Shown here piece after piece: positions 3,999-43,540 of a DNA stretch of 64,000 nucleotides. The DNA comes from Macrolepiota albuminosa (taxonomy: Eukaryota > Basidiomycota > Agaricomycetes > Agaricales > Agaricaceae): the NCBI GenBank assembly GCA_027475525.1, contig JAMWFC010000009.1, positions 1,984,001 to 2,048,000 on the forward strand, read 5' to 3'. How positions within the stretch are numbered: the first letter of the stretch is position 1; each line of letters begins with the position of its first letter. The position numbers and the translations under genes were made by a program. The notes beneath the pieces are model-generated. The model had not been told where the DNA came from. It searched no databases and was given only the letters and a program-made list of their open reading frames with translations.

Positions 3999-4410
3999 TG
4001 ATGACGCCAACTGTAGTTGGGTGCGCTGGACGTATACGCAGTACAACACCGTCTCCAGCGCTTGGCGTGTGTAGTTGTGAGGAGTCCTGACAGGGTCCCG
4101 GTGTGCTCAAGTGGGAGTGGTAAAACAATGCACTAGATTATAGTGCTTCGGGGGCTACCTGGCAGACGGTAAGTGTCGTAGTTTAGACAAAGATATTGAA
4201 GAAAAGAAGAGTAGTGCAGCATATTGTGCCCATAGGTGGCACCGTAAACAACGAAGGTGACATAGACGAGGCTAGCGCCTGACTTAGTGACAATGATAGG
4301 CTTCTACTCGGACTGAGCGCATCAAGGGACATTATAGAGTCCTGAGTACGTCAAGTGTTGGTTGGCCTATAATGTCCCTTGATGCGCTCAGTCCCAGTAG
4401 AAGCCTATCA
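3999..4410 (-). repeat. B1 3' LTR, shortened and rearranged
   Basis: Begins TGATGACGCC (plus strand) and ends AAGCCTATCA, as the other B LTRs do. It is only 412 bp against 1071 bp for its partner at 15481. The first 290 bp align with the partner. Then about 650 bp are missing and an inverted copy of the outer LTR end is present instead. Confidence 0.9.
4294..4410. repeat. Hairpin made from inverted copies of the LTR end
   Basis: Arms 4294-4337 and 4367-4410 are 44-nt inverted repeats with a single mismatch, separated by 29 nt. Both arms correspond to the outer end of the B LTR. The structure is absent from the other three B LTRs, so it arose in this copy, perhaps by strand switching during reverse transcription or by a later repair event. 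Confidence 0.92.
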
Positions 4411-4419
4411 TCTCCCCCC
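4411..4419 (-). promoter_or_regulatory. B1 polypurine tract
   Basis: GGGGGGAGA on the minus strand, directly against the 3' LTR, where a plus-strand primer tract is expected. The same tract is at 32393-32401 in B2. Confidence 0.85.
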
Positions 4420-4499
4420 AACTGAAAAATTGACTGTCCTCAGTCAAATACCGTCATTAATTTGACTGTGCTACGGTCCGTATAATGCCGCCGGCGCCT

Positions 4500-4507
4500 T
4501 ATAAAAG
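4500..4507 (+). promoter_or_regulatory. TATA box of B1 cargo gene 1
   Basis: TATAAAAG 50 nt upstream of the cargo gene 1 ATG at 4557, in a short leader next to the 3' LTR. B2 has the same octamer at 32482-32489. Placement suggests that the gene has its own RNA polymerase II promoter firing opposite to gag-pol. Confidence 0.7.
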
Positions 4508-4556
4508 TCGTTTTCAGCACTTCACCTTCTCGTGTTTTCCTTCCTATCTTTCCAGC

Positions 4557-7067
4557 ATGTCCACTCCTTTTGATGCCTCTGCTCTCCGCAATTTCCTGGC
4601 TAAGGCCTCCTATTTATTCAATCACGCTAAGTCTGTCGGTCCCGCCGATGCGCCACAAACCGTCTCTGGCATTATGCAACTCTATTGGCGCTGGCTCGTG
4701 GTCCGTGGCTCTGACAGTTCCTGGGCGTGGGGCGTCAAGGTTCATGAATGGTGCATGGCTCGGTACCACGAATATGAGGGTGCCGATTGGTTACGACTGT
4801 TTGCGGACTTGTTCATAAGTTTTTAGGTTTGATTTTGGATTTGTGGCGCTAAGGTTCAGCGCCCATACTAGGCTCCTTCTCTGTCCGACAAGATTGATGC
4901 CCTGCTGGCTAGTACCAAGGTTGGCGAAGTGAGTTCCTTCCTCTTTTTCCTCACATTTTCCATATTAACCCTGAGTAGTCGGTTGCTACGTCGCCCACCA
5001 TCGCCAGTCTTCCTAGTGCCCCGTCAGCCTCTACCGTTCCTTCCGCTCTGGCCACTCCTGCTGCTCCTGTCCCTGTTCTGCCTCCTCCCATTCTTGGTAG
5101 TCCTTTTTGTGGCGATGTTTCTCCTGCTCATACTGCACCCATCGTCGCTTCTCCCACTCGCACTGCGCCTCCTCATTCGGCCATCAAACAGATTGCCGTT
5201 ACCGCCAGTGAGCCCTGGCCCAGACATACCCATACTATTTCTCGCCTTCCCCCCTGTAACTTCGCCGTGGTTATTAATCACGTGCCCCCTGCTCTCGCTA
5301 GCCCTCCTAAACATACCGTGCATCCTTGTCTTCTTGCCTCTAGTTCTTCTACTAACTCTGCTTATTAGGTCAATCTCCCTGCTCATGTTGCCCCTTTATA
5401 TGTTGTAAGTGTTTCCTTTTAAGATTGCTTGTCTCTAGCGCCTGATCAAGCCCTCCTTAGATGCCCAACCAAACTATGTTTACTGATGTGGAGCTTCATG
5501 ATTTGCTGCGCCTTTGTCGCGATACTACCGTCATTGATACTGGCCTCCCAGCTGGTGTCCAAGTACTCAGTGCTAAGAAGAAGGTTACAGTGGCACCCGT
5601 GGAGCGCCGTGCCTTTAGGGCAAAGATTGGTGCAGTAAGTGCTTGTTCGTCCCTGAAAGGTTGATGATGTCACTAACTTCTTTCTCAGTGCGATAAATGC
5701 TGGTCTGAGAACAATCCTGAGGGTTGCTGGTTTCCTACCGCCTCTCTTCCCTGCTACCGCTGCAATGCATTGAAACAGGGCTGTGCTTTCAATAGGATTT
5801 GTACTCGCAAACGTGGTAGGGACGCTATCATGCAACGCAATTACGAGCACGCAGTGCTAGTTCGTAATGCCCAGGCCTTCGTGCTGCAGCAATGCGATCT
5901 GGCCGCTACTCGTCAGCCTACTGTGATTAGCACTGCGAGTCTAGCACTTCCCATCACCCAAGATGGTACCACCATGGTGGCCCCCTTTGCCCGCTCTCCC
6001 CGTCGTCCCATCCCTTCGAAACGTAAGCCCATTGTCGCCTCTCCTAGCAAGAGTCCTGGTAAGCGCAGGGAGCTAGCGCCTGCTACTCCCGTGGTCTTGT
6101 CTTCTACCAAGTCGTCTACTGATGAAGGCAAGGATACCAAGAGGGACGCTGAGGGCGAGAATGACAATGAGGCTGGGCCTGTAGTCGACACCGATGCGCT
6201 GTTGGTGGTACGCGCTCTTCTGCTTCGCCTTACTCCTCCTATCGCCGCTAACCCTTATCAGAGTGGCCCCAGTGGTAATCAGTGCGTAGTCTTCATGTTT
6301 TACTTTTTAGGTGGCGCTAACTTCTTTGTCGCCAGGTCTCCTACTCCTTTGCTTCCTGTCATTGTGCATATCCCTCCCGCCGGAGATGTTGTGATGTCTG
6401 TCGCCGGCGCTACCCCTGCTCCTGAAGCTGTCGCGGCTAGCGCCTCCCCCGTTGCCCTTCCTATTACCCCTTCTTTTACTCCCCCTTGTAGCCTTTCTTC
6501 CTTCCCCAGTACTCGCGAGTCCTCCACAGCGCCTGAGTCTGAAGGGACCTTAGTGGCTCATGGTGAGTGCCGTCGCTGCTGGAGGTACTTGCCTTCTTAT
6601 GGCATCCACCTTTTCTCCGCTAGGGCCATGTCACCAGGCGATGAGCGCCATGAATGGACCCCACGTGCTTCCGTAACCGTTCGAGTAAGTCTGCATTTCT
6701 TAGTCAGTTTGCCTTTTCTCTGACCTCCGCTAAGTTCGATCCCTTCTGGACTCCTCCCCCTGCCATGCGCGTTTCCGGCGACACCTACCCTTGGCTTGGG
6801 GATGAGTTCTCTTATCCCATCACTCCCCTTTGCCCTGCCGCTGATCTCCGCCAACAACTTCGTCAGGTCGAGGACGCAACCGACGTTATTGGTAGCGAGC
6901 TCGCCCTCCTACGCCCTCATGTTTCCACCTTAGCACGCTGTGAGCTCCTCCTGCTTGAGCTCCATGACGACATCACTGATGCACTCGAGTGGCAAGCGAG
7001 TAATGCCATTCAGGATGGGGACTTGCTTCCTTTGGGTGATCCCGCTCCCTCTGCGTCTGATGCGTAG
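4557..7067 (+). pseudogene. B1 cargo gene 1: Zn-cluster protein, eight exons, first donor lost
   Basis: Antisense to gag-pol. Exons by comparison with B2: 4557-4814, 4872-4928, 4979-5317, 5369-5404, 5461-5634, 5689-6281, 6336-6684, 6735-7067, joined length 713 codons with stop. All junction phases match B2. The exon 1 donor reads AT instead of GT (4815), so correct splicing is doubtful and read-through stops six codons later. Exon 6 opens with six cysteines (C-x2-C-x8-C-x8-C-x2-C-x5-C), close to the fungal Zn2Cys6 cluster. Pro/Ser/Thr-rich stretches and basic patches (SKRK) follow. The C-terminal exon has heptad-like leucines. Function unknown; DNA binding is an inference from the cluster. 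Confidence 0.75.
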
Positions 7068-7595
7068 TCGCCGGCCCGTAGCGCTTGGAACTTTTTGTGG
7101 ACTTTGAACTTTTTGATACATAGTTTGTGATAGCTCTACCAAAAATAAACGCTCCCCCCCTTTGTTTTGAAATTGTCAGTTTGTAAGTAATCAAAATACA
7201 AAGTAAGAAAAAGAGGAAACACTCAGTAAATCATCATAGCGTCGAAAACCCCTATTACCAGCACGACCCAATAGCCAATATTGCGCCAGCCTAGGAAGAA
7301 ATAGGTATCGTCTGTAGAAAAATAAGTCGATTCATGCAAGAAGTTTTAATGTATAAGAAATAGAGTGCCACTGATCGCTTGTGGTTATTCGGTGATGGTG
7401 GCTATAAGCGCTAGATCTCGAAGGTTAACTTCCTCTTTGTGCGACCTAACATTAGTTCAAGCGCATCCTATTGGTTCGTGTCTGCGTCAGGGTCCAAGCC
7501 CCTTGAGAAGTGCCCTCCCACGCTGTCGCTAGTTGAAACACTGTCTGAGTCCTATAAATTGCCCATGCCTCGACAGCATCTCATCAGTCTTCACG
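7068..7595 (+). promoter_or_regulatory. Spacer and promoter between B1 cargo genes 1 and 2
   Basis: No coding signal. It holds the 3' flank of cargo gene 1 and a TATA box, TATAAATT at 7553-7560, 36 nt before the ATG of cargo gene 2. In B2 this TATA box and the start of gene 2 are deleted. Confidence 0.55.
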
Positions 7596-8108
7596 ATGGA
7601 AAGCCCAACCGGCATCATGTGGACTCCCTGCTGTGATCGTGCTCATATCGTAATTGATCCCCCCACTTTCCTGGAACGCGCTACCTCATTCTTCCACCAC
7701 TACCCAGCGGTCAGCGTGCCCGGATTGACTGACAGAGTCGTTGAGTTAGGTCGTCGCTGCCAGCTACTTTGTGCGGCTTGTGAGATTTGGAACGATGACC
7801 TGCCGTTGACCCGTTTTGGTATGGAGAAAAACTGGAGTCAGATTTTTCAGGTGCGCTATTGCCTTTTTTGCCCTCCTTCTCTTCTGATAGTTGCTAAATA
7901 AAGCAAATTGCGACCAAGGAGATGAAGGAGCGTCTTCAGTTGCTGCTGGAGGAGAGTCACTACCTGGTTCGTTGCCTTATTACCTCGTTTTCTTCCTTCT
8001 AACGCGTTGCCCCGCTAGGCGCCCCGCTTGTCTACTGGTGGCCGGCTTTTTCACGGTCCGGCTGAAGGTTGGCGGCCTCCCAGGCCTCTCCTTTTGCCTG
8101 GGCCTTGA
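7596..8108 (+). CDS. B1 cargo gene 2, three exons, unknown function
   Basis: Exons 7596-7850, 7904-7966 and 8019-8108 give 135 residues. Introns are GT...AG, 52-53 nt, all phase 0. The ATG was chosen because it follows a TATA box by 36 nt and opens the frame that continues across both introns. Exon 1 contains a helical-looking segment with several cysteines (CQLLCAACEIW). Exon 2 encodes a short amphipathic segment (MKERLQLLLEES). The layout (long exon 1, exon 2 of about 20 codons, both junctions phase 0) matches cargo genes 1 and 3. No known domain recognised. The B2 copy has lost exon 1. Confidence 0.65.
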
Positions 8109-8347
8109 TGCTCGTCCATCTCCCATGTTGTTTATGTAAGTTGGCTCCTTCTTTTCCGTGGCGCCACTGGACTGACAGATTTCAGATACTTGATATCTTT
8201 TGTCGTAGTTATATGAACTGCATCGCTGTTGTCACCCCCCCTCATGATTGTTTTGTGCATGTAAGAATTCCCTAGTATCTGTGACCCTGCAAGTAGCTTG
8301 AGGTACTTTATGGGTTCTGGCACGGTTAACCCAGTCAGTATCACATC

Positions 8348-8976
8348 ATGCCAGTAGTTCCCCTTCTCCTTGATGAGCCCAAACGCCTGTACCGTCCTGC
8401 TATCCTAGACCGATTAGAGCAGTTCCTCGCACTAATGCCTACCGGCAGCTTTCCGCATGAGAATGGCAATACTATGACCTTGGTTCGCAGGTACCAGATT
8501 CTTCTCACCGCTTCCAAGGAATGGATGGCCGATGTCGACCCATCCATAATCACCGTATGCCTTCCCTTAGCGCGGGTCGTGAGTAATACTCATGCATTGT
8601 GCAGGAGCCGGTCACAGGTAACACTCTGAGTCTGGCCAGCCTACTCCGTGAAACGGGAACCTTGGTTAGTTCTTATCTTTTTCTAACCTGAGGTTGTTAA
8701 CTCCATGCTGTCTCTAAGAGTCTCTCCTGGCTCCCCCTTCCCCCTCTCGTCAATCTTGATGCACGTCGGGCTATATTCAAACGCACAGCCTTTCCTTACC
8801 CATTGTTTGAGTCCTGCCTGGATGGGGATGGGCGGTACTCATTTCCAAACCCCTCGGCCGCTTCTCCAGGCGCTACTCCCGCACCTCCTCCTAGCGTTCC
8901 CATTCCTCCCATACCTTCTGCTAACACGCCACCTCCAGGTGCTCCCCCCACCTGCAGGCGACCTAAGATCAAGTGA
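8348..8976 (+). CDS. B1 cargo gene 3, three exons, proline-rich C-terminus
   Basis: Exons 8348-8554, 8605-8664 and 8719-8976 give 174 residues, with phase 0 junctions and GT...AG introns of 50-54 nt. The N-terminal exon resembles that of cargo gene 2 (LDRLEQFLALMPTGS, then RRYQILLTASKEW). The last exon is rich in proline and alanine and ends in a basic tail (RRPKIK). Start and exon borders were fixed by alignment with B2 (36119 onwards), where the same junctions are used. Function unknown. The remaining sequence to 9153 holds nothing coding that I can support. Confidence 0.65.
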
Positions 8977-15480: not shown

Positions 15481-16551
15481 TGATGACACCAACTGTAGTT
15501 GGGTGCGCTGGACGTATACGCAGTACAATGCTGTCTCCAGCACTTGGCATGCATAGTTGTGAGGAGTTCTGACAGGGTCCCGGTATGCTCAAGTGGAGGT
15601 GATAAAACAATGCGCTAGATTATAGCGCTTCAGGGGCTACCTGGCAGACGGTAAGCATTGTGGTTTAAACAAAGATATTGAAGAAAAGATGAGTAGCGCA
15701 GCATATTGTGCCTGTAGGTGGCACCGTAAACGACGAAGACGAGATAGACGAGGCTAGCGCCCGACTTAGTGACGAAGTCAAAGGAAGCTAGTGTGATTTG
15801 AACGCTAAGTGTAACTGTGTGCTCAATGGGTTACGATTCGTTGTTATATACATGTAAAGTAGCTATTTAATATACTATGCGCTATCATATTTGCCAAGAT
15901 ACAAGTCCATCTGCAGCGCTACCTCCTAGCGCCTCTCCTTGTGGTTTCTTCTAATAGCGACCTGTCAACGGTGACCTTTTGCACATGGATGACGGCGACC
16001 AACAGCGTTATGACCCACGGCAACCAGCGGCGACTCTATATTGGCTTAGAATTGCATGAGTCTGCTTACTTTTATTATAACTCCGATTGGCCAGGCTGTT
16101 CCGGGGTATGGTCAGAAAATCCTCGACAGATGCCGTGAGTGCTAATGTCAGCGCTACTCATTGTATCAGTTCTGGACAGGTCCAGATGTTGGATTTAAGT
16201 ATATCCAGTGCCGCCGTCATTGATCCTTTTAGACTTCTGATTGAAGTGCCTCGTCAAATGGCAGCACCTGCTGCTGGCTCCTTCTGGAAGTGATCGGGGT
16301 TTAGTTAGAGTCCTCTCCCGCCGTCATGTTAGCGCTATACATTATGAGCCTCCTTCGTCCTTGGGATAGGTGAATGGAGTGTGCTGAAGGCTCGGTAGCT
16401 AGGGGTTAGGATAAATGTCTAAATCCTGTAGTAGGTTGCCAGAGCTCAAGCTGCTCTATATTCCCAACTGGTCGCTAGAGTCCTGAGTACGTCAAGTGTT
16501 GGTTGGCCTATAATGTCCCTTGATGCGCTCAGTCCGAGTAGAAGCCTATCA
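15481..16551 (-). repeat. B1 5' LTR
   Basis: 1071 bp, TGATGACACC...AGCCTATCA on the plus strand, TG...CA ended. Homologous to the B2 LTRs with scattered transitions and small indels. Confidence 0.9.
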
Positions 16552-20704: not shown

Positions 20705-20715
20705 ATTGGGGGGTA
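20705..20715 (+). promoter_or_regulatory. C1 polypurine tract
   Basis: ATTGGGGGGTA directly before the 3' LTR. Its complement is found at 25738-25748 in C2, and D has a similar tract at 51293-51303. Confidence 0.8.
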
Positions 20716-20885
20716 TGTAACGGAACATCATACTTGTACTAGCGTCAACAATGCTATAGGTATCCAGTATAGTATTATGTAAGATAACATCTTGTATTCA
20801 CTCTAGTTCTAATCAATCCAATACTGCAGTCTGATTCAGCACTGTGTGATACACACAAGATCATAACCTCTACAGAACAGTTACA
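20716..20885 (+). repeat. C1 3' LTR
   Basis: 170 bp, TGTAACGG...AGTTACA, diverged from the 174-bp LTR of C2 in the reverse orientation. It fixes the right end of C1. Confidence 0.88.
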
Positions 20886-31348: not shown

Positions 31349-32392
31349 TGATGACGCCAACTGTGGTTGGGTGCGCTGGACGTATACGCAGTACAACGCC
31401 GTCTCCAGCGCCTGGCGTACGGGTTTGTGAGGAGTCCCGGCAGGGTCCCGGTGTGCTCGAGCAGAGGTGATAGGGCAATGCGCTAGATGATAGCGCCTCG
31501 GGTGCTACCTAGCAAGTGGTAAGCGTCGTAGTTTAGGAGAAGTTATAGAGAAATAGGCGAATAGCGCAGCGTAGCGTGCCTGTAGGTGGCACCGTAAACG
31601 ACGAAGACGAGATAGACGAAGCTAGCGCCGAACTTGGTGACAAAGTCAGGCAATGCTAGCGCAATTTGAACGCTAAGTGTAACTGGGTGCTCAAGAGGTT
31701 ACAATTCGTTGTTATATACATGGCAAGTAGCTAGTTTTTATACTATGCGCTACATTATTTCCAAAATAAGTCCATTGACGGCGCTACCAATTAGCACCTC
31801 TCTTCGTGACTGTAGCTAACGGCCACCTGTCAACGGCGACCTGCAGCACATGGGTGATGGCGACCAACGGCGACTCAAAAACTACTTAGAAGTGGTACGA
31901 GTTTGCTCACTTTTTTGATGTAATTTAATTGGCCATGCCATCCCGGGGTATGGTCGGGGAATCCTCGACAGACGCTGTGAGCGCTAATTCCGGCGCTAAA
32001 CATTGTACCATCTTTTGATAGATTTAAATGTTGGGTCTGCGTGTATCCTGTCTCGTCGTCATTGATTCTTTTAGACTTCTGATTGAGGTGCCTCGGTGAT
32101 TGACAGCGCCAATTGCTAACTCCTTTCAGTACTGATCGGGGTTTGGTCAGAGTCACCTCCCGCCGTTATGCTAGCGCTATGAGTTCTGAGTCTTCTTGGT
32201 CTTCAAAGTAACTGAGTGGAGTGCGCTGAGGGGCTGATACTGGTGATTGAGATGAATGGATAAGTCTTGCCATAGAGCGCCCGCGCTAGGGCTGCTCTGT
32301 ACCCAAGGCTGGTTGCTAGAGCCTCTAGTGTGTCAAGTGTTGGTCAGCCTATAATGTCCCTTGATGCACTCAGTCCGAGTAGAAGCCTATCA
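31349..32392 (-). repeat. B2 3' LTR
   Basis: 1044 bp, TGATGACGCC...AGCCTATCA. Complete, unlike the B1 partner, and lacks the hairpin of B1. Confidence 0.95.
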
Positions 32393-32401
32393 TCTCCCCC
32401 C
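32393..32401 (-). promoter_or_regulatory. B2 polypurine tract
   Basis: GGGGGGAGA on the minus strand next to the 3' LTR, same as B1. Confidence 0.85.
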
Positions 32402-32481
32402 AACTGAAAAATTGACTGTCCTCAGTCAAACGCCGTCCTTAATTTGACTGCGCTACGGTCCGTATAATGCCGCCGGCGCCT

Positions 32482-32489
32482 TATAAAAG
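32482..32489 (+). promoter_or_regulatory. TATA box of B2 cargo gene 1
   Basis: TATAAAAG 49 nt before ATG 32539. The flanking leader is nearly the same as in B1. Confidence 0.72.
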
Positions 32490-32538
32490 TCGTTTTCAGC
32501 ACTTCACCTTCCCGTGTTTTCCTTCCCATCTTTCCAGC

Positions 32539-35024
32539 ATGTCCACTCCTTTCGATGCCTCTGCTCTCCGCAATTTCCTGGCTAAGGCCTCCTATTTATT
32601 TGATTGCGCTAAGTCTGTCGGTCCCGCCGATGTGCCACAAACCGTCCCTGGCATTATGCAACTTTATCAACGCTGGCCCGTGGTCCGCAGCTCCGACAGT
32701 TCCTGGGAGCGGGGTGACGAGGTTCGCGAGTGGTGCGTGGCCCGGTACCGTGAGTATGAAGGTGCCGATTGGTTGCGCCCTTTCGCGGACCTTTTTGTAA
32801 GTTTCTAAGTTTGATTTTGGCTTTGTGGCGCTAAGGTTCAGCGCCCATACTAGGCTCCCTCCTTATCCGACAAGATCGACGCGTTGTTGGCTAGTACCAA
32901 GGTCAGCGAGGTAAGTCCTTCCTTTTCTTCCCCCCTTTTTCCACTGTTAATCCTTGAGCAGTCGGTTGCCACGTCTCCCACCGTCGCCAGTCTTCCTACT
33001 GCCCCCTTGGCCTCTACTGTCCCTTCTGTTCCTACCACCCCTCCTTCTTCGACTTCTGTTCCGCCTCCTTCCGTTCTTGGCAGCCCTTTTCATGGCGCTG
33101 CTTCTTCCATTCGCACTGCCCCTCCCCATTCGGCCATCAAACGTATTGCCGTTTCCCATAGCGAGCCACGACCCGGCCCGACACGCCCAACTTCCCACAG
33201 TCCTCTGCATAATTTCGCCATTGTTATTGAACGAGCGCCCCCTGCTCGTGCTAGTTCTCCCAAACGTACCGTGTGTTCCTTCCCTATCTTCCTTACTCCA
33301 TTTTTCTGACTTCTCCCCTTCCAGATCAATCTCCCTGCTCGTGTTCCCCCTTTGTATGTCGTAAGTGCTTTGCTCATTGTTGCTAGACTTTAGCGCCTAA
33401 ATGTTAATGTCGATAGGCGCCTAACCAGACCATGTTCACCGACGCGGAGCTTCGTGACCTTTTGCATCTTTGCCGTGATACTACCGTCATTGATACCGGC
33501 ATCCCGGCTGGTGTCCAAGTACTGGGTGGCAAGAAGAAGGTTACCGTTGCACCCTTGGAGTGTCGCGTGTTTAGGGCAAAGATTGGCACGGTAAGCACTG
33601 GTTTGCCCATTGGTAGGTTCATGCTGTCGCTGACTTCTTTCTTAGTGTGACAAGTGTTGGTCTGAGAACGATCCTGAGGGCTGCTGGTTTCCTACCGCCT
33701 CTCTGCCTTGCTATCGGTGCGATGCGTTGAAACGAGGCTGCACCTTCAACAGGATTCGTACTCGTGAACATGGTAGGAATGCCATTATGCAAAGGAACTA
33801 TGAGCGCGCGGTGTTGGTTCGTAACGCCCGGGACTTCGTGCTGCAGCAACGTGATCTGGCAGCTACTCACCAGCCCACAGTAATCAGTGCAGCCAGCCTG
33901 GCGCTGCCGACTACCCAGGATGGTACCACTGTGGCGGCACCTTTTGCTTTCTCTCCTCGTCGTCCCGTTCTTTCGAAACGTAAGCCTGTTGTTGCGTCTC
34001 CTGGCAAGAGCCCTGGTAAGCGCCACGAGCTAGCGCCTGCTACGCCTGTGGTTTTGTCTTCGACCGAGTCTTCTACAGATGAGGGGGAGGGCACTGAGAG
34101 GGATGCCAAGGGAGAGAATGATGATGAAGCTGAGCCTGTTGTTGATGCCGATGCGCTGTTGGCGGTACACGCTCTCCTGCTTTGCCTTACTCCCCCTATC
34201 GCCGCTAACCCTCGTCAGAGTGGCCCCAGTGGTAACCAGTACGCATTTTCCTAACTTCTTTTTCTTCGCGTGCTAACTTCTTGACTGATAGGTCCCCCAC
34301 TCCTGTTCCCGCCGTAGTGGCTATCCCTGCTGCCGAAGATGTCGTTATGTCTGACGCTGGCGCTACCCCTGCCCCCAAGTCGGTTGCGGCTAGCGACACT
34401 CCTGTTGCTCTCCCTATTACTCCATCCCTTACTCCTCCCCACAGCTCCTCTTCTTTTCCTAGTAGTCATGAGACTTCTGCGGCGCCGGAGTCCGAAGGAA
34501 CCCTGGTGCCAGAAGGTGAGCGTCATCGCTGCTGGAGATACTTGCCTCCCTACGGCATCCATCTTTCTTCCGCTAGAGCTATGTCCCCTGGCAACGAGCG
34601 CCATGAGTGGACACCCCGCGCGCCTGTAACTGTCCAGGTACATCCGTCTTTGTTCGTGCCCTTTTCTCTCCTTTTCTAATCTCCCAATAAGTTCGATCCC
34701 TTTTGGACGCCCCCTCCCACCATGCGAGTTTCTGGCGACACCTTCCCTTGGCTTGGGGACGAGTTCTCCTATCCCGTTACTCCTCTCCGTCCCTCTGCCG
34801 ACCTTCGCCAGCAACTTCGCCATATCGAGGATGTGACCGAAGTCGTTGGTCGTGAACTTGCCAACCTGCGTCCTCGCGTTTCCACCTTAGCTCGCTGTGA
34901 GTGCCTCCTGCTCAAGCTCCATGACGATATTACGGCTGCGCTTGAGTGGCAAGCGAGTAACTTGATCCAGGATGGGGACTTGCTTCCTTTGGGCGATCCC
35001 GCCCTTCCCGAGTATGATCCGTAG
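32539..35024 (+). CDS. B2 cargo gene 1: Zn-cluster protein, eight exons, intact
   Basis: Exons 32539-32796, 32854-32910, 32962-33270, 33325-33360, 33417-33590, 33646-34238, 34292-34637 and 34692-35024 give an uninterrupted 701-residue product. Introns are 51-57 nt, GT...AG. Exons 1-5 end in phase 0; exon 6 ends in phase 2. The ATG follows a TATA box. N-terminus: helical segment (LRNFLAKASYLF...WPVVRSSD). Middle: Ser/Pro-rich. Exon 6 starts with C-x2-C-x8-C-x8-C-x2-C-x5-C, then RKRGR-like basic residues, a likely binuclear zinc cluster. Acidic and low-complexity stretches follow, then a leucine-rich C-terminal exon. It lies antisense inside a retrotransposon. A nuclear DNA-binding role is inferred only. 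Confidence 0.8.
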
Positions 35025-35570
35025 TTGCCGACCCTTAGCGCTTTAAACTTCTTATGGACTTTGTCATTTGATACGTACTTTGTAGTGTGTGATACTAAAA
35101 TAAACGCCCCCCTTTGCTTCAAATCGTCAGTTTGTAAGTAATCAAAAAGAAAAATAAGTAAAAAGGGGAAACGCTCAGTAGATCATCACAGCGCAAAAAC
35201 CCCTTTTGCCGACGCGGTCCAATAGCCATTACCGCGCCAGCCTAAGTAGAAAATAGGAACTGTCTGGAAATAAATAAGCGGATCCATGTAAGAAGTAGAG
35301 CGTATAAAGAAATAGAAAACCAGTGATCGCTTATGCCCGTTTAGTGCGGTTGTGAGTAAGCGCTAAACATCGAATGTCGATTCCCTTTTTGGAGGGACCC
35401 AGAATAAGTTAAACGCTTCTGATTGGCTAGCGCTCCTGTTAGGGTCCTGGCTCCTTGAGAAAAGTCCTCCCACACTGTCGCTAATCACCACTTGGAGTCA
35501 GGCTTTCCATGTGCGTGTCTTGCTATTCTTGGCGCACTACAGTGCCCTTCTGACAGTCGCCCAAATCCAG
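35025..35570 (+). other. Spacer with deletion of the B2 cargo gene 2 start
   Basis: 3' flank of gene 1, then sequence matching B1 up to about 35485. About 300 bp present in B1 (TATA box, ATG and most of exon 1 of gene 2) are missing here. Remnants of the end of exon 1 and of intron 1 lie at 35495-35570. Confidence 0.6.
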
Positions 35571-35864
35571 GAAATCGCCACCGAAGACACGGCGGATCGT
35601 CTTCAACTTTTGATGGAGGAAAGCTATTACCTGGTTAGTGACTGAGCCATCACCTCTCCTTCTTCCGTGTCTAACGGCCCTTTTCTCCTAGTCCCCTCGC
35701 AAGTATACCGGTTAGTGACTGAGCCATCACCTCTCCTTCTTCCGTGTCTAACGGCCCTTTTCTCCTAGTCCCCTCGCAAGTATACCGGCACTCGTCTCTT
35801 TTGTGGTCCCCTCAAGGGGCCGACGGTTGTTAGCAAGCGTATTTCTTGGTTCGGCCCTTCTTGA
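35571..35864 (+). pseudogene. B2 cargo gene 2 remnant (exons 2 and 3)
   Basis: Exon 2 (35571-35633, 21 codons, DRLQLLMEESYYL) and exon 3 (35769-35864, ending WFGPS and TGA) match B1 gene 2. Intron 2 lies between but carries an exact 77-bp duplication (35634-35787). The missing promoter and exon 1 mean that no normal product is made. From here to 36118 nothing coding is seen apart from a TATATAT at 36074-36080 ahead of gene 3. Confidence 0.65.
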
Positions 35865-36118
35865 CCTGTCGTGTGTTGTTTTCCTTCCCCCCCCCCTGTT
35901 GTTTGAGTGAGGCGATCCCATCTTCTTTGCAGCGCCACCGGCCTAACATATTCCCAGCTTTTTGCTTCTCCTGCCATAGATATATGAAATACATCGTTGT
36001 TGTCGCGTTCTCGTGATGGTGCCGCATAAGTTCTGTTTCCTAAGTCCCTTAGACCCTGCATAATGTCGCTAGGTATATATCTGAGATTTCCGAGCCTAGC
36101 GTTGTTAAGTTCTTCGGA

Positions 36119-37061
36119 ATGCCTACTCCCTCTTTCCTTCTCGAAGACATCACCTCTATCCCTCATCCTGAGGTTTTAGATCGCCTCGAGATGTTCTTTG
36201 CTCGACTGCCGCCAGGCAGTATTCGACACCACAACGGGAACATCCTTACCCTGATTTGGTGCTACCGGTTACTTCTGGCTATGGCCCAGGAGTGGCTCGT
36301 AGAGTCCAAACAGCACCCCAACGTGGTAAGTTTCTACCGTCAGGGTGATTAAGTACCTTCTTACATGTCCTTCCAGCCTCCTATTTTGGGTAGCACAAAA
36401 AGCTTGGAGTACCTACTCCTCGAAACGGATAATGTTGTTAGTTCCTCTCCTTTTCCCGTTCATACGTTCAGGTTTGCTGACCCCCAGCTTCAGACTTTGA
36501 AGTGGTTGCCCTTGCCAGACCTGATTCTTTTCCCGTTCATACGTTCAGGTTTGCTGACCCCCAGCTTCAGACTTTGAAGTGGTTGCCCTTGCCAGACCTG
36601 ATTGATGACGAAGTTATACGTTCAGGTTTGCTGACCCCCAGCTTCAGACTTTGAAGTGGTTGCCCTTGCCAGACCTGATTGATGACGAAGTTTGTGCCGC
36701 CACGCTTCAGCGCGTCATCATACCGTTTACGCCTCTAGCTCCTCGCTTCAGAGCTGGAGCGCCTCCTGCCCCCATAAATGAGTCTCCACCCGGCTCCTCC
36801 ACCTTTCGCTTCAGAGCTGGAGCGCTGCCTGCTCCCATAAATGAATCTCCCCCCGGCTCTTCCACCTTTCGTGCTGGAGCGCCGCCTGCTCCCATAAATG
36901 AATCTCCACCCGGCTTCTCCACCTTTCCTCCTGGGACCTTTCCCTCCACTCCGTCGCCTATTCTCCCCCCTGCACCGCCTCCTTCTCCTGCGCAACTCCG
37001 CCGCAGACAGCACCCTAGGCGCTCTGAGGGATTTGTTAGGGGTCCTCGCCATAGAGCGTAA
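36119..37061 (+). CDS. B2 cargo gene 3, three exons, proline-rich with internal repeats
   Basis: Exons 36119-36325, 36377-36436 and 36648-37061 give about 226 residues, all phase 0 like B1. The acceptor for exon 3 was chosen as CAG before ACTTTGAAGTGG because it aligns with B1 and keeps the frame; two overlapping 77-bp duplications (36451-36692) place three copies of this acceptor region in the assembly. Exon 1 encodes LDRLEMFFARLPPGS and a Trp/Tyr-rich helix. Exon 3 carries three tandem units with AGAPPAPINESPPG, absent from B1, and ends in a basic tail. TATATAT at 36074 is 38 nt upstream. Unknown function. Confidence 0.65.
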
Positions 37062-37188
37062 AGTAGCCAATAGGTCAATTATTGCCAGCTTCATAGTCCT
37101 GTATAGTATGAAATCCTATGCGTTGTTGTTCTTTTCATAAGTGAGGTGCAAGGCGCTAAGGTCTAGCGCCCTTCCCCTTTGTGTCCTA

Positions 37189-40100
37189 TTACTGATCGTT
37201 TTCTTCTTCTTGTGTGACTTCGTCATCGTCCACAAGCTCGGTCTCTTCTAGCTCTCGAAGTTTAGCAGTGTCAATGTCCAGCGCCGATGAAGGTAATGAA
37301 ATGTGTTCATGCGCTAAGTAGGGAATGAGTCGGAACACCGCTACTGGTCGATGCAAAACTGAGCCGTCCAACTCGCAGAGTACGTATGCGCCTCCCCTAT
37401 TGCGAGAAACCACTATTAGGGGTCCCAGATACCAAGGCCGCATCTTTTTGTTATGGGTAACTTCGATCTTGGAGTTGCGCATTAGTACTAGAGCGCCAGT
37501 TGTAAAGTTGTAGTCTCAAATCGTGGCGCTATGCTTGGTTTCAAACCGTAGCGCAGCTTGTCGTCTAGCCTGAAATACTACCTCGTGTAAGCGCTCGAGA
37601 TCCTCCATGCGTCGTTGTAAGTCTATAGCGCGTCTAGCGATCATGTTGGTAGAGGATAGTATTGAGTTCGGTGGGGGTTGTAGGTACGTCGCTTCCACCA
37701 CGTCTGCAGGTAGCAAGGGGTGGGTGCCAGTCGCCGCATAGTAGGGAGAGCAGCCCATCCTCTTTCATACTGTAACCCGCTCCGACCAGAAGACCGAATA
37801 AGTCGCCTCGCTCCAGCGACTTTCGTCACCATCGACCGCCTTGAATAGCGCTTGTCGAACATCGAAATGAGGCCTTTCTACGATTCCATTAGCGCGTTTA
37901 TTGTATCCTGAGACTCGGATGTGTTGTATGTTGTATTTCTTGGCAAGATAAGTGAGCGCCTTGACTATTGGCGCTCCATTGTCTGTGACGATCTCGTGAA
38001 GGGCTCCCCATCGGCAGATAACGTCCTCAAAAAGCCACTTAGCTATAGCGTCTGTATTTTCCCGCTGGAGCATACGGAACTCCGGCCAATGTACCAAGGA
38101 ACACCTTCCTTGAATGATATACTTGTAGCGCCCTGACTTGGGCATGTGCATGGTGTCGATATATATTTTTCCGAATAACGGCGCTGGAGTCGCTACTGTT
38201 GGGGGAATCAGGACTTGGGCATGTGCATGGTGTCGATATATATTTTTCCGAATAACGGCGCTGGAGTCGCTACTGTTGGGGGAATCAGCACCTGACGTGT
38301 CTGCTGGATTTGACAGAGATGACAAGTGCGAATATACCACGCAATATCGGCGCTAACTTGCGGCCACCAAAAGCGCTCCAAAAGGTTCACCCTTGTCGCG
38401 TAGAGTCCTCGATGTCCCAAGTCATCATGCATAGCGCGTAGAATCCTAACTCGATTATCCGGTTTAATTACTAGTTTATGGGCGCCATCTCTATTTTGTC
38501 GCCAAAGTCAGTTTTCCACTATAAAGAAAGTCGTCGCATATCGAATGAAGGTGGCGTATTCCGTATCTGTAAGGTCTGATGGTCGTTGCAAATCCTGTAG
38601 CCACTTCCTAACCTGGTCCACTCGCTGATCTTCTGACTTAGCTTTGGCGCTTCGAGGTACCGCCGAATATGGCAGGTTCTGACTGTCTTCTCGCAAGGGT
38701 CTTGGTTCCTCAACTATCTTTAGATCGTTAGACGGCTTAGCGACGTTATAGATACTGGCCGTGTAAAAAGTCGATGATGCCTGATATGGTCAGGGCTGGT
38801 ACGGAACAATAGGGTGAAGCCAAGTTGAAACTGGCTGGTCTTTGTGAGGGACTGGAATAGGTAACTGAATGATATGCATGAAATCATGCAATCGATCAAT
38901 CCAGTCGTCAAATACGTTGTTGTCGCTATTGTCTAGCGCTTCGTCTTCCGGTTGTCTGGGTCGCCTAGATAATCCATCCAGCCCGTGGAACGCACTTCTG
39001 ACGTGTACTAACTCAAAGTAAAACATTAATATCGATACTACCCAGCGGTTCATACTGGCCAAAGGTTGAATATCAGGGTTCTGAAGCATTCCCTTGATGT
39101 ATCGTGCGTCGACCTCGACAATCAGATTCCGTACCCCAATGAGGTACATGTGCAGCGCCTGAAACGATCGAAACAAGCCATATAATTCTAGCTTGGGCTG
39201 ACTGTAGCGCGATTCTTGGTCGTTAAGGGTAATTGATCCGAAGCAATTGTAGCGCCTGATTTTCCGGTTTGCGCCATCACACTGGCATAGAAAGAAGCCA
39301 ACGGCGATATATGATGTGTCAACAGCAAGTATAACAGGATCGGCGGTAGTATAGTCAATAGGTACCAATGGTTTCGCTTCTTGTAGTGCCTTTACTAAGT
39401 CCTTCTGGGCATTGATTTGATTGGGTCCGAATTCAAAGGGGACCCCTGAACGGGTTAGGCGATTAAGGGCGTTTGCGCGATGTGAAAAATGGTGTATGAA
39501 CATGCGCAGCACCCCTACAGTGCCCAAGAATGCACGAACTTCCGAGAGGTTATGACAGACCCCCCATTTCTCCAACAGCGCTAATCGGCTCTTTTCTGGA
39601 ATCCTGCCTTCTGGCGTGCAAACGTGCCCCAAAATTTTAAACTGCGGTGCGCAAAGAACGAGCTTGTGCCCTGAAAACGTCCTGCCACAATACTTCATGC
39701 GCTGAAGTACTCGGTTAACCAGTTGAAAGAATTCCCATAGCGCCATGCGAATATTAGGATTTTCCAGGTGAACTTCGGGCTTGCCATCTACCAATCGCCA
39801 ATCCTTCGGGCCTTTAACTCCTACGTCGTCTATGAAGCTGAGCACATGGTGGGGTATTTCGGGCTGTAGGATAAACGTAATATCGTCGTGAAATATCGGT
39901 ACCAAGTTTGTCCATCCCATAGGAAGTGTGACTAGTCGTAGCACCCCAAATGGTGTTTGAAATGTCGTCAAGTTGCGAGAGGAAAGATGGATTAAGCGCT
40001 CGTCATAGCCCACATACAAATCCAGGGTAGCGCCACATATTCGTCCCGCGAAAGATTCAGCAACGTGATCGGGAAATGGCGGTACCCCTGAATGACGAAT

Positions 40101-40976
40101 GGTGACTTTGTTTAGCGGTTCTAGGCTGTGAACTATACGTAGCTTCCCGTTTTTCTTTAGTACGCAGAACCACCTCGAGCGGTAGGCCGAATTAGAAGGC
40201 TCATATACACCTGCCGCTATCTTGGAGCGAATAATTTGGCAGACTTCGGCTTCGATGCCCGGGGGTATGGGGCAGTTATGCTCAGTCCAGGGTACGTGCG
40301 GTATTGTCGGTATAACCACTGGTGGAAAGAAGTCAGTTCTAAGTTTACCGCGTTCTGAGTCCTCCCATGCGAAAGCCTCATTCTGTTTTTGCATGATGTC
40401 GACTAATACGTTCATTTTCTCCATCAAGAGGAAGCCGGTATCGTGGGCGCTAAGAAATAGCACCTTTCGTTCTTCTGTAAATCGTCCTGTTGGTTCAAAG
40501 GGTGGTGGATTTGAATCGAGTTTTGGCAGGGTAGCCAAAGGGTCACCTATTATTTTTCTTTCGATGCGAAATTCCTCGGGTACGGCGCTTGCTACCGGTT
40601 TCGTTTTAAGTGCTACGGGTTTATATTTCTTCTTGACCTGAACCCCTTTGCGCCTAGGAGTACTATTGTTAGCAAACGTATTATAAATAGAGTCATGGTT
40701 TCTAGCTAAACCTGATATCAAAGGTTCTTTAGAGTCGGGAGTAGAAACGAAATAAGTGTCTGTTGAAAGGTTTTTAGTAATATCTGACGCAGTGAGGTAT
40801 AAGTAGGATAACGCTTCGCTAGTAAGCGACGAAGAAGAATTCAAGATTTCATGGGCTAAAGGGGTATGTGATATAAAGTTTACTTGCCCAGTCCGATGGT
40901 TATAGTCCAAGATAAGCGCTTCATCTCCATGATCCTCATCACTCATCTCCTCAATGGCGCCGGAAAACACTCGCAA
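37189..40976 (-). pseudogene. pol: B2 pol: RT, RNase H, integrase
   Basis: A 728-codon open part (40976-38790) covers RT and RNase H: LRIVHSLEPLN, GATLDLYVGYDE, LPMGWTN and the catalytic SFIDDVG, then AVDTSYIAVGF for RNase H. Integrase follows: HDDLGHRG and CHLCQ zinc ligands, YIDTMHMP, VTDNGAP and NGIVER for the DDE triad, then a C-terminal fold ending at 37189. In-frame TGA codons at 38788, 38508, 37765 and 37516 interrupt it. The first three are sense codons in B1; the last is TGA in both. No chromodomain was seen. The frame starts in a 34-nt overlap with protease. Confidence 0.88.
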
Positions 40977-41653
40977 GGGTCGTCACTAATGTAAGGTCGC
41001 TTTCTCGGTCCCGGTTTCTGGAATTTCCCCCGGGGAAATGTTGGTACCGTTCTTCTGACGCCCGAGTTAGGGTTGCTAATAGTTAGCGTTGTTTCATCTT
41101 CAGACGTCATCTTGACTACTGATCGGGCTAAGACGTCAAAGGGCCTCCCTAATAATAAGTTGTACGCAGGCGATCTAAGAATGTGTATTTGAAGGTAGAA
41201 TGTAAGATTGCCAACAGCACATGGCACGTTACGGGCCATTCCCAAGGATCGATCAATAGTGCCGTTAGCGCTTTGCATATTAAGAATGATGGTCAGGCCG
41301 TAAATGATGCCAAGCTTGTTAGCGACATCGGCAGCCATTGAAATAATCTGTGATCCGCTGTCCACGATAGATTCTATCTCGCTTTTTCTATCAACTGTCA
41401 ACATAATCGAGCGAATCGCATGAGAGTCTTGGGCTACAGTGAGGACGGCAGGATTGTTGCTAGATCTTAGCGACTTAAGGTAGGTTTCAACCGGGTCAAT
41501 GGACGTAGCTTCTTTGGGTGGCGTGGCCTCTTCTTTGATTTCCGATGCTACCGTCTCTGTTATGTACGTGAATCCAGGTAGCAAGTCGTCGCATTTGTCC
41601 ACCGCCATTACATTGTTAGCTACATTTTGTCGAGGGGTAACCGCTGTACGCAT
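40943..41653 (-). CDS. B2 aspartic protease region
   Basis: Open for 236 codons. VDSGSQIISMAADV is the catalytic DSG site and LLLGRPFDVLARSVV the downstream helix of retropepsin-like proteases. The TAG that separates it from gag (41654-41656) is CAG in B1, so gag and protease were originally one frame. It ends in TGA inside the RT frame, which is shifted by -1. Confidence 0.8.
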   Translation of the reverse strand: MRTAVTPRQNVANNVMAVDKCDDLLPGFTYITETVASEIKEEATPPKEATSIDPVETYLKSLRSSNNPAVLTVAQDSHAIRSIMLTVDRKSEIESIVDSGSQIISMAADVANKLGIIYGLTIILNMQSANGTIDRSLGMARNVPCAVGNLTFYLQIHILRSPAYNLLLGRPFDVLARSVVKMTSEDETTLTISNPNSGVRRTVPTFPRGKFQKPGPRKRPYISDDPCECFPAPLRR

Positions 41654-43540
41654 CTAATTCCTGACGTCTGGCGCCACACTGCATAGCTCCCCTACCGACA
41701 TCATGACTTGACTTTTCATAATACGATCGAATACTTGCTTAGATTTCTCTATGTCGTAGATTGGTGCCGTTGGTCGGTAGCCTCCTGCTGGCTTGTCTGG
41801 CGCCCCAAAGTTTTGATTGACAGGTGGAGCGTAGTTACCGGCAAGTCCTGAATATGGGTGTAGTGGCAGTTCCGTGCTATCTGGCGCTTTGGCGGTGTTG
41901 GGAGCATCGCCATTAGTTCTGGTATTCGAAGGCTTTGCTGGTGCTGGGTCTGACGTAGCGCCTGAGGGTCTATAGTCCTTCAACGGTTGTTTGCTCTTTT
42001 TAATTTCGACTCCGTCGAAGACCTGATTTTTTAGCGACTTCAATTCCCTTTCTAACGTCTCGATCCTTTCCTCTCGTGACAAAGTGGGCCTCTCGTTAAC
42101 AGCGTTAAGCTGGAGGACCTCATGAATTAGCGCCTGTTGTGGAGTCGCCTCTGCCTCCATCATGGCCATACTATTAAGGTTGCCCATCACTAAGTTCCCA
42201 GGGTTACGTCGGTGCCATTCGTCAATTTGTCCCTGGAAAGTTTGGTGCTCGGGATATAGAGGAATGTTAGCGCCAGAGGGTAGGACTATTTTCCCGTTGG
42301 CGCCTCGGCGTGCTCTTCCTTGGCGTAGATATTGTTCGAGGATAGCGCAGCGTCCGTGAGTCATCGTATATCCTGCCTCACCACAGAAGTGACAAGGGCT
42401 GGATTGCATATTACCTCATGGTGCATTAAGGCTAGTCGAGATTAATGTTTCCAATTTGCTCATAACGTTTGCGACGGCCATGTTGACTGCGTTTTCCAGA
42501 TCCTCCTTCTTGACAAAACCTCCCTGATTGTTAGTCGCGCTAGGTGCTGGCGCCGCAACAGGTGGCGCCTTTCCTCCGTTATCAGTGCTAGAAGGTCGCT
42601 GGAAGGGGATGCCAGTATCCGTTCCTTTCAGTATCCATTTACCTGCTTCAAAAACGTCTTCTATATCGTAGGGTTCCTCAGGATGGTGGTCGGACTTAAG
42701 AATTTCTAAGCGACGAGCTATACGAGTCCATAGTGATGTTGGAATGCCTTGTTGAAACAAGCGCTGCTCCTTGTTCCTGTAGAGTTTGCCGTTCTGTACT
42801 AGCCATCTTGCAATTCGCTGGAAATCTCGATAATAAGTAGATAGCGTGCCTAGCATATAAATGCCCGTTGCGAAGGTATCCTGTACCAGTTTCTGGATTT
42901 CAAGGATGGTATAGCGTGTGGATTCTTCAGCGCCAGGATACAGTTTAATGATCGCCTTTTTCCATTCCTCGTAGGTAAACGACCTTGGCACCGCATCTCG
43001 TGTTAATCCTTGAAACTCGTCCAGTCCTGTCCAGGATTCCGTGGTATCGTAGGAAACGTATCTGGCGGCGTATTCTTTCCTTTGTGTGTTGTCTGTGACT
43101 CGGCAGTCGCGTAATAAATACTCCAATTCTCGGAAATACTGGGTTAACTTGCGAGGCTTTGTCTTGTCCCATTTTGGCGACGAGAAGTGGTTTCTTGGCA
43201 GCATGCGTGGTGTGTTTGCCTGCTCCATACTAGCTGGCATTGACGTCGTGGTGGGAATAGTAGTGTTAGTAGTAGTTTCGCTTGGCATGGTTGTAGTCGG
43301 TACTGGCTCAGGTAATTCTGAGTCGCTAGGTTCTGGCGATAATGACCTAGACAGCTCTTCCAAAGGAGTAAGAGGTGTATGGTTTTCACCTGCTAAGTAT
43401 TCGAACGGCCAGGAAAACGGGAAGAAGCTTTTAGCCAAGCTATCTGGAGCGGCTTCAAGTTCCTGGTCTAAAGTTTGCCTTGGTAATGCGCCTGGTAAGT
43501 GTGGTGATTCAGGTAAGGTTTGTTCAAACGCGCTCTCCAA
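41654..43540 (-). pseudogene. gag: B2 gag with one in-frame TGA
   Basis: Starts ATG 43540 and runs 374 codons to TGA at 42416 (AGA in B1), then continues in frame through the CCHC-type knuckle (CHFCGEAGY, then C) near 42340-42395 and a coiled-coil linker to 41654. The capsid-like part contains YFRELEYLLRDC, YPGAEE and a WLVQNGKLYRN helix. The N-terminal 60 residues are Ser/Pro/Thr-rich. It is nearly intact; a single reversal would open the whole gag frame. Confidence 0.82.

What the first reader, a model, noticed from the sequence alone, without database searches (positions are those of the whole stretch)
4411..8976. Retrotransposon family B carries three intron-containing genes antisense to gag-pol
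Between integrase and 3' LTR, both B1 and B2 hold a 4.6-kb block coding on the opposite strand. The genes have TATA boxes, GT...AG introns of 50-57 nt in the same places, and frames that stay open across the joins. Introns can persist here because the genes are antisense: the genomic RNA would carry reverse-complement introns that the spliceosome ignores. Two independent insertions share the arrangement, so it is a family trait. I know of no described function for such a cargo.
Basis: partly seen in the sequence, partly recalled or inferred. Interest (0 to 1): 0.92.

Follow-up and report, generated by a model that had tools for sequence, protein, structure and literature searches.

The report
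Antisense gene cassette in fungal retrotransposon
A jumping gene found in hundreds of places in this fungal genome carries, back to front, a cassette of three genes that appear to keep their introns and that selection has preserved, probably to regulate the jumping gene itself through a short DNA motif scattered along it.

Summary
Family B is a Ty3/gypsy-type LTR retrotransposon carrying, between integrase and 3' LTR, a ~4.6-kb block of three genes antisense to gag-pol; the LTR|PPT|block junction occurs 693 times genome-wide (up to 3 mismatches). Gene 1 (701 aa in B2) has 7 predicted introns, genes 2 and 3 two each. In 40 gene-1 copies, 280 of 280 acceptors and 271 of 280 donors are kept and 17 models are complete. 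B1 versus B2 or B3 dN/dS is 0.12-0.13, near RT (0.085) at equal dS. Colinear homologues exist in Termitomyces. The window copies are imperfect: B1 lost donor 1, B2 most of gene-2 exon 1.

New: gene 1 has a six-cysteine cluster (40 of 40 copies) resembling, but not matching, fungal Zn2Cys6; and the element, its LTRs above all, is studded with TAGCGC (10.2/kb in 31 LTRs, 0.48/kb genome-wide), kept outside LTRs better than permuted hexamers. I infer an element-encoded DNA-binding regulator, perhaps anti-silencing like plant VANC; expression, splicing and binding are untested. Antisense cargo at this place is known (plant Retand/Grande, Botrytis Boty); the multi-intron three-gene form and the motif array make it a new variant.

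The parts
3999..4410 (-). B1 3' LTR as assembled: partial and rearranged (LTR piece, inverted piece, LTR end)
   Evidence: the LTR is ~1.04-1.07 kb at the B1 5' end and in B2
4411..4420 (-). B1 polypurine tract (reads GGGGGGAGA on the - strand), start of the antisense block
   Evidence: sequence
4499..4507 (+). TATA box of B1 gene 1, 58 nt before its ATG
   Evidence: sequence
4557..7067 (+). B1 gene 1 (8 exons by homology with B2; donor 1 is AT, so intron 1 is splice-defective)
7596..8108 (+). B1 gene 2, exons 7596-7850, 7904-7966, 8019-8108, 135 aa
8348..8976 (+). B1 gene 3, exons 8348-8554, 8605-8664, 8719-8976, 174 aa
9154..15238 (-). B1 gag-PR-RT-RH-IN, interrupted frames
15481..16551 (-). 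B1 5' LTR (TGAT...ATCA) with 10 TAGCGC motifs
31349..32392 (-). B2 3' LTR, 97.4% identical to its 5' LTR, 12 TAGCGC motifs
32393..32402 (-). B2 polypurine tract, start of the antisense block
32481..32489 (+). TATA box of B2 gene 1
32539..35024 (+). B2 gene 1, exons 32539-32796, 32854-32910, 32962-33270, 33325-33360, 33417-33590, 33646-34238, 34292-34637, 34692-35024; 701 aa, open
33646..33741 (+). six-cysteine cluster C-x2-C-x8-C-x8-C-x2-C-x6-C of gene 1 (residues 279-310)
   Evidence: all six Cys in 40 of 40 copies
35495..35866 (+). B2 gene 2 remnant: exons 2 and 3 kept, exon 1 mostly deleted (bounds approximate)
36119..37061 (+). B2 gene 3, interrupted by 77-nt head-to-tail duplications that look like assembly artefacts
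37178..43540 (-). B2 gag-PR-RT-RH-IN
43620..44663 (-). B2 5' LTR with 11 TAGCGC motifs; PBS TGGAGCCCACCGC just inside

Best explanation
Family B is a Ty3/gypsy-type retrotransposon whose pol-to-3'LTR region is an antisense accessory cassette, expressed from its own promoters, the first beside the 3' LTR/PPT. Its mRNAs are spliced and made on the strand opposite the genomic RNA, so the introns survive retrotransposition. Shown here: a conserved multi-exon coding structure, purifying selection, fixed position and orientation in the copies examined, and Termitomyces homologues. Inferred: transcription and splicing; gene 1 makes a nuclear DNA-binding regulator through its six-cysteine cluster. Inferred more weakly: its target is the TAGCGC motif studding the LTRs and body, through which the element raises its own transcription or resists silencing. 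Genes 2 and 3 share an N-terminal domain and would be partner proteins. My estimates: coding cassette real 0.95; serves the element 0.8; gene 1 binds DNA 0.5; TAGCGC is its target 0.35.
For: Selection: gene 1 dN/dS 0.13 (B1-B2) and 0.12 (B1-B3) at dS ~0.73, and 0.20 for the close pair B2-B3 at dS 0.08 (13 of the 40 copies used); introns differ at 33-36% of sites, exons at 16-20%, the 146-bp PPT-to-ATG stretch at 7-8% in three distant pairs (L002-B2, L022-L011, L036-L016). RT of the window pair B1-B2, 499 codons: dN/dS 0.085 at dS 0.76, so gene 1 and pol diverged together. Gene 2 dN/dS 0.10-0.17 between subfamilies; gene 3 0.10-0.33, with dS undefined in many pairs. Splice sites. Homologues: 6 Termitomyces proteins, one of 626 aa colinear over the whole length. 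Position. Six Cys in 40 of 40 copies and in 5 of the 6 Termitomyces proteins (P0008 lacks the first pair). Motif: 9.3-11.5 per kb in the window's three whole LTRs, mean 10.2 in 31 LTRs, 0-0.34 per kb in the rest of the window, 0.48 per kb genome-wide, reversed hexamer 0.26. Motif sites kept from B2 to B1: 9 of 11 in the 5' LTR; 17 of 31 outside LTRs against 57 of 245 permuted CpG hexamers, Fisher p 4e-4. Genes 2 and 3 N-termini related: hhalign probability 92%, E 7e-7.
Against: No RNA, methylation or binding data. No Pfam match: gene 1 and gene 2 whole at E up to 1; gene 1 Cys-cluster piece, gene 2 N-terminus and gene 3 at E up to 10 (HMMER's filters drop most matches above 0.1). No PDB relative (the one hit, E 0.12, is an RNA-binding protein). 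AlphaFold models are poor (mean pLDDT 43 and 58), so no fold search was made. The first Cys spacing is 8, not the 6 of Zn2Cys6 (recalled). Gene 1 also has one hydrophobic window (residues 443-461, mean 1.72), so a membrane segment is not excluded. In the LTR alone motif retention (9 of 11) is not clearly above permuted hexamers (12 of 23); a maximum-order Markov model does not list TAGCGC among its top hexamers, since its sub-words are enriched too; within the block the intergenic stretches carry only 1.7 and 0.35 per kb, and gene-1 intron motifs lie in introns 1, 4 and 6 only. Family B is also less CpG-poor than two of the three other stretches, which favours CpG words in general. Nothing links gene 1 to the motif directly. 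4 of 24 RT copies had no junction in the 0-mismatch list. Neither window copy shows a clean target-site duplication.
Confidence: 0.55

Rival explanations
1. Passenger cargo: host genes captured by the element and dragged along without serving it.
For: Antisense orientation lets any intron-bearing insert survive; the proteins have no recognised transposition domain.
Against: dN/dS 0.12-0.13 at dS 0.73, comparable to RT; the cassette is in all four subfamily groups sampled; all six Cys in 40 of 40 copies; the six database homologues found are several proteins of one Termitomyces strain on contigs of 1.7-3.6 kb, not a single-copy host gene, though the two searches were word-limited.
Confidence: 0.08
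2. The antisense block acts through its RNA (antisense or double-stranded RNA that tunes silencing) and the reading frames are incidental.
For: Antisense transcripts of LTR elements can feed small-RNA silencing (discussed in PMC7264820, passages).
Against: Third-position excess and low dN/dS, e.g. differences of 68, 42 and 257 at codon positions 1, 2 and 3 for L022-L011; colinear Termitomyces proteins. An RNA role in addition cannot be excluded.
Confidence: 0.05
3. Accessory proteins with a non-DNA role (capsid partner, nuclear import, RNA export, membrane); TAGCGC is a site for a host factor that drives or silences the LTR.
For: Nothing ties gene 1 to the motif; the Cys cluster has no Pfam Zn2Cys6 match; long helices in the poor model; one hydrophobic window; motif density is highest in LTRs, where host factors would bind.
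Against: Motif enrichment and retention extend into gag-pol and some introns (gene 1 introns 5.7 per kb, exons 2.7 per kb), not expected of an ordinary LTR promoter site.
Confidence: 0.3
4. The gene models are an artefact: chance frames and chance GT..AG pairs in a degenerate repeat.
For: Both window copies carry lesions (B1 donor 1, B2 gene 2); internal AGs are also fairly conserved.
Against: 701 open codons across 7 joins in B2, 17 of 40 complete copies, dN/dS, and Termitomyces gene predictions that run through joins 1, 4 and 5, the ones in well-aligned parts.
Confidence: 0.02

Closest known systems
Plant Retand/Tat-type antisense ORFs between pol and 3' LTR (Retand TRP28, Grande gene23, RIRE2, PvRetro13)
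   Same: Same place and orientation; similar region size (2,933-6,566 bp, average 4,616 bp, in Retand); own promoter for gene23; proteins nuclear or predicted DNA-binding; function unknown (PMC11963269 abstract and passages; PMC7264820 passages).
   Different: No TRP28 or other Pfam domain found here. Here three genes with 7, 2 and 2 introns; the word 'intron' occurs 0 times in both papers' main text. Fungal host. Dispersed hexamer array instead of family-specific tandem repeats.
Botrytis cinerea Boty antisense gene brtn (Zhao et al. 2011)
   Same: Fungal gypsy element with one additional antisense gene (cited in PMC7264820 and PMC8365987, passages; the 2011 paper itself was not seen).
   Different: One gene, ascomycete host. 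Sequence and intron content not compared, so homology is untested.
HTLV-1 HBZ and related antisense proteins of deltaretroviruses
   Same: Spliced antisense transcript from the 3' LTR side encoding a regulatory protein (PMC3185765, start of abstract and passages).
   Different: Transcripts start inside the 3' LTR in HTLV; here the TATA box is in the internal region beside the PPT. No bZIP match in Pfam here.
VANC anti-silencing proteins of Arabidopsis VANDAL DNA transposons
   Same: The element encodes an accessory protein and carries a high-density short motif across itself, introns included, that is rarer elsewhere (PMC5735166, start of abstract and passages).
   Different: VANDAL is a DNA transposon (recalled); VANC binding and demethylation are experimentally shown, here not. 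VANC motifs lie mainly in noncoding tandem repeats in one orientation; here they are dispersed, in both orientations, and also in coding sequence.
Fungal Zn(II)2Cys6 transcription factors
   Same: Six-cysteine pattern with a second half P-C-x2-C-x6-C (resemblance recalled).
   Different: First-half spacing C-x2-C-x8-C instead of x6 (recalled consensus); no PF00172 match for the Cys-cluster piece at E up to 10.

Membership tests
Ty3/gypsy LTR retrotransposon | two LTRs with TG..CA-type ends, PBS and PPT | tested here: met
   B2 LTRs 31349-32392 and 43620-44663, 97.4% identical, ends TGAT..ATCA; PPT beside the 3' LTR; TGG-start PBS. No clean target-site duplication in B1 or B2
Ty3/gypsy LTR retrotransposon | PR-RT-RH-IN order in pol | tested here: inconclusive
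   RNase H above the Pfam cut-off; PR and integrase H2C2 below the cut-offs; RT read by eye from the FIDD motif (recalled); order PR, RT, RH, IN along the - strand
[quoted passage not shown]
   (20 of 24 RT copies on contigs with a complete list)
LTR retrotransposons with antisense ORFs 3' of pol (aORF-3R) | antisense transcription from an internal promoter | not testable with these tools
   TATA boxes only; no RNA data
Retand lineage (TRP28, PF04195) | antisense ORF with TRP28 domain | tested here: not met
   no Pfam family for genes 1 and 2 at E up to 1 or for gene 3, gene 2 N-terminus and gene 1 Cys-cluster piece at E up to 10
Boty/brtn | sequence homology to brtn | not tested
   brtn sequence was not held
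Zn(II)2Cys6 (PF00172) | match to the domain model | tested here: not met
   none at E up to 10, within HMMER's filters
VANC/VANDAL anti-silencing | homology to VANC | tested here: inconclusive
   no Pfam domain found; VANC itself was not compared directly
VANC/VANDAL anti-silencing | element-specific high-density short motif | tested here: met
   but dispersed and in both orientations
VANC/VANDAL anti-silencing | protein binds the motif and lowers DNA methylation in trans | not testable with these tools
   needs EMSA, ChIP, bisulfite
HBZ-type antisense regulators | spliced antisense transcript from the 3' LTR | not testable with these tools
   gene models only

The most novel reading that the evidence does not exclude
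Family B is a retrotransposon counterpart of the VANC system: an antisense, intron-bearing cassette encodes a sequence-specific DNA-binding protein that recognises TAGCGC arrays across family copies in trans and lifts silencing. Diverged gene-1 homologues in the same genome (70 and 89 candidates scored with two queries, a minority of them family B itself) would be parallel systems with their own motifs.
Probability: 0.25. Interest if true: 0.88.

Novelty: new variant of a known kind. Interest (0 to 1): 0.72.

Why it matters
Retroelements are expected to shed introns. Here eleven predicted spliceosomal introns in three genes persist through copying because the genes lie antisense, a natural demonstration that antisense placement lets a retrotransposon carry fully eukaryotic, self-promoted genes. 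If the gene-1 product recognises TAGCGC, it is a testable self-recognition system in an LTR retrotransposon, bearing on how such elements reach hundreds of copies despite silencing, and on the unanswered function of antisense ORFs in plant and Botrytis elements.

Tried and rejected
Tried without result: Pfam for genes 1-3; PDB by sequence (39, 86); AlphaFold on P0006 with 5 relatives (50, 63: pLDDT 43) and on the Cys-cluster exon (73, 83: pLDDT 58), both too poor for a fold search; viral contigs with the gene-1 exon and with RT-RH (33, 34: no relatives). Gene 1 N-terminus as a third member of the gene 2/3 domain: not supported. Env-like role: disfavoured but not excluded; the best 19-residue hydrophobicity means are 1.7, 0.6 and 0.8 for genes 1-3, and 1.7 is at the level often taken for a membrane-segment candidate (threshold recalled). 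A nested independent element: rejected because in 38 of 40 loci the same LTR end is followed at once by the block start (L007 and L008 had no exact match to the LTR-end word). The first gene-3 model search began one base off and found nothing; the ATG used later is 8348. Literature: 10 answered searches, of which I saw the listings only (4 to 20 rows each, capped; searches matched thousands), listed no paper on antisense multi-intron cassettes in basidiomycete LTR elements; the library is open-access only.

Rows dropped before counts: one search used 60 of the 61 scored RT copies (one split copy on C111 left out; the second row of the C92:3402253 copy not counted apart) and 97 of the 100 listed junctions (three 77-nt duplicates left out) plus block starts; the junction list is complete only for 0-mismatch places on contigs C1-C89. 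Gene 1 was projected on 40 copies and genes 2 and 3 on 33, all from the best-scored hits, a sample of hundreds; dN/dS used 13 copies for gene 1 and 14 for genes 2 and 3, the last over their first 318 and 330 nt. Bases inserted relative to the reference copy were dropped from the codon alignment and counted as frameshifts when not a multiple of three. Intron motif density left out aligned introns over 80 nt. The 31 LTRs are those in which both ends matched.

Full report
WHAT IS THERE. The window is C122:1984001-2048000 of a 100-Mb genome in 129 contigs. Family B has LTRs of 1.04-1.07 kb with ends TGAT..ATCA, a PPT beside the 3' LTR, a TGG-start PBS, gag, protease, RT, RNase H and integrase on the - strand, and a block of about 4.6 kb on the + strand between integrase and PPT. 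Pfam support is firm for RNase H only; protease and integrase hits are below the curated cut-offs, and RT was read by eye. Neither window copy has a clean target-site duplication.

GENE STRUCTURE. B2 gene 1 has 8 exons and 7 GT..AG introns of 51-57 nt and reads 701 aa without a stop. Gene 2 (B1) has 3 exons and 135 aa; gene 3 (B1) has 3 exons and 174 aa. I projected gene 1 on 40 copies: AG at 280 of 280 acceptors, GT at 271 of 280 donors, the other 9 AT, 7 of them at donor 4. 24 of 40 have no frameshift or stop and 17 of 40 are complete. In 33 rows gene 2 has GT/AG at 132 of 132 dinucleotides and 28 of 33 rows have no frameshift or stop; gene 3 has 131 of 132, one donor lost in L007. Gene 3 frame counts are unreliable because its proline-rich C-terminus varies in length. 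Control: non-splice AGs in the introns are kept at 84% and non-splice GTs at 59% in 28 B1-type copies, so the acceptor count alone proves little.

WINDOW COPIES. B1 gene 1 has a mutated first donor. B2 gene 2 lacks most of exon 1. B2 gene 3 contains head-to-tail 77-nt duplications that look like assembly artefacts: the window has 21 of period 77 and, at the same threshold, none of any other period from 60 to 99.

SELECTION. Gene 1: dN/dS 0.13 (B1-B2) and 0.12 (B1-B3) at dS ~0.73, 0.20 for B2-B3 at dS 0.08, and 0.11-0.27 within groups (13 copies). RT of the window pair B1-B2: 0.085 at dS 0.76 (499 codons). So gene 1 has diverged with pol and is constrained almost as strongly. In three distant pairs introns differ about twice as much as exons, while the PPT-to-ATG stretch is the most conserved part. 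Between groups genes 2 and 3 give 0.10-0.17 and 0.10-0.33; dS was undefined in 14 of 73 gene-2 pairs and 14 of 73 gene-3 pairs, B1a-B3 of gene 3 wholly.

MOSAICS. B2 and B3 are close in gene 1 (dS 0.08) but their gene 2 differs at dS ~2.2 (5 of 9 pairs undefined) and gene 3 at ~1.6; B1a and B1b are close in gene 2 (dS 0.35) but gene 3 has dS ~1.6. Gene 2 and 3 divergence between B1 and B2 groups (dS about 2) exceeds that of RT (0.76). The simplest reading is recombination between subfamilies inside the block.

SPREAD. The LTR|PPT|block junction was found 693 times at up to 3 mismatches (reversed control 0), some of them 77-nt duplicates; a pattern reaching further into the family-B LTR end gave 287 at up to 2 mismatches, so related LTR ends probably carry the block start too. 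Of 60 RT copies, 31 had a known block or junction on the antisense side within 15 kb and 2 had one in the same strand; on contigs with a complete 0-mismatch list it is 20 of 24. The four without may have junctions with mismatches.

HOMOLOGUES. Two word-limited searches of a 5.8-billion-protein set found six, all hypothetical proteins of Termitomyces sp. T32_za158 (2 of 7995 and 6 of 2192 scored candidates). P0006 (626 aa) aligns over the N-terminal domain, the Cys cluster and the C-terminal helix, running through gene-1 joins 1, 4 and 5. The same genome as the window holds many relatives: 89 candidates scored of 1865 with P0007, 70 of 2370 with P0006, at least 8 of the 89 coinciding with family-B blocks, and one group in six identical-score copies on five contigs. 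I could not read their surroundings.

PROTEIN CLUES. Gene 1 residues 279-310 read C-x2-C-x8-C-x8-C-x2-C-x6-C, all six cysteines in 40 of 40 copies and in 5 of 6 Termitomyces proteins. It resembles a fungal Zn2Cys6 cluster (recalled) but has no Pfam match. Gene 1 also has one hydrophobic stretch. Genes 2 and 3 share a 46-residue stretch (hhalign probability 92%). Models were too poor to use.

MOTIF. GCGCTA/TAGCGC is the most over-represented hexamer (among those seen 8 or more times) of both elements relative to base composition (7- and 9-fold). Density: 9.3-11.5 per kb in the window's three whole LTRs, mean 10.2 and minimum 6.5 in 31 LTRs, where a permuted CpG hexamer pair averages 0.49; 0-0.34 per kb in the rest of the window; 48,168 genome-wide, 0.48 per kb, against 26,149 for the reversed word. 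Flanks outside the LTR in fetched loci: 0.72 per kb over 13.9 kb. Retention from B2 to B1: 5' LTR 9 of 11 (permuted 12 of 23); gag-RT-RH 8 of 15 (29 of 131); IN C-terminus 3 of 7 (6 of 32); gene-1 part 6 of 9 (22 of 82); outside LTRs 17 of 31 against 57 of 245, p 4e-4; from B1 to B2 outside LTRs 17 of 25 against 57 of 197. In 21 B1-type LTRs, 10 of the 11 B2 sites are kept in 76-100% and one in none, permuted mean 59%. Against: a higher-order Markov model does not single the word out; CpG is less depleted in family B than in two of the three other stretches; intergenic parts of the block carry 1.7 and 0.35 per kb; gene-1 introns carry 5.7 per kb against 2.7 in exons but only in introns 1, 4 and 6.

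MECHANISM. Shown: conserved coding, antisense and intron-bearing cassette under purifying selection. Inferred: transcription from the TATA beside the PPT, splicing, translation; gene 1 a DNA-binding regulator; TAGCGC its target. The analogy is with VANC, whose motif is enriched in its own element and found in introns too (PMC5735166, start of abstract and passages).

KNOWN WORK. [quoted passage not shown] PMC8365987 passages); in Retand 97% of clusters have antisense ORFs with the TRP28 domain, predicted to bind DNA (PMC11963269 abstract and passages). HBZ gives a spliced antisense precedent in retroviruses (PMC3185765, start of abstract and passages). None of the passages seen describes a multi-intron multi-gene antisense cassette or a dispersed motif array in an LTR element.

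Noticed in passing
21 places, e.g. 29512, 30793, 36450, 38135, 45196, 62673: Near-exact head-to-tail duplications of 77 nt and, at the same threshold, of no other period from 60 to 99: probably overlaps of an assembly graph left unmerged; they break frames artificially.
   Followed up: yes
3999-4410: The B1 3' LTR is collapsed with an inverted piece (4294-4337); in most fetched copies the LTR start and end lie about 1 kb apart there, so this is probably a misassembly.
   Followed up: partly
32393-37061 versus L041-L046: Subfamilies are mosaics: gene 1 is nearly the same in B2 and B3 while genes 2 and 3 are deeply diverged.
   Followed up: partly
whole genome, e.g. G000:C30:6340-8496 and 19483-21639: Many diverged gene-1 relatives, some in identical-score sets and one pair 13.1 kb apart, suggesting further mobile families with such genes.
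   Followed up: partly
51126-51292 and 62066-62300; 25564-25737 and 62625-62875: Near-identical short repeats (the first pair TA-rich with a GTGGCCAACGCCAC hairpin-like core) shared between distant parts of the window.
   Followed up: no
43620-37178, - strand: gag-pol frames of B2 end at 42416 and 41654 and restart in the same frame; other copies have an open frame of up to 1239 codons at RT.
   Followed up: no
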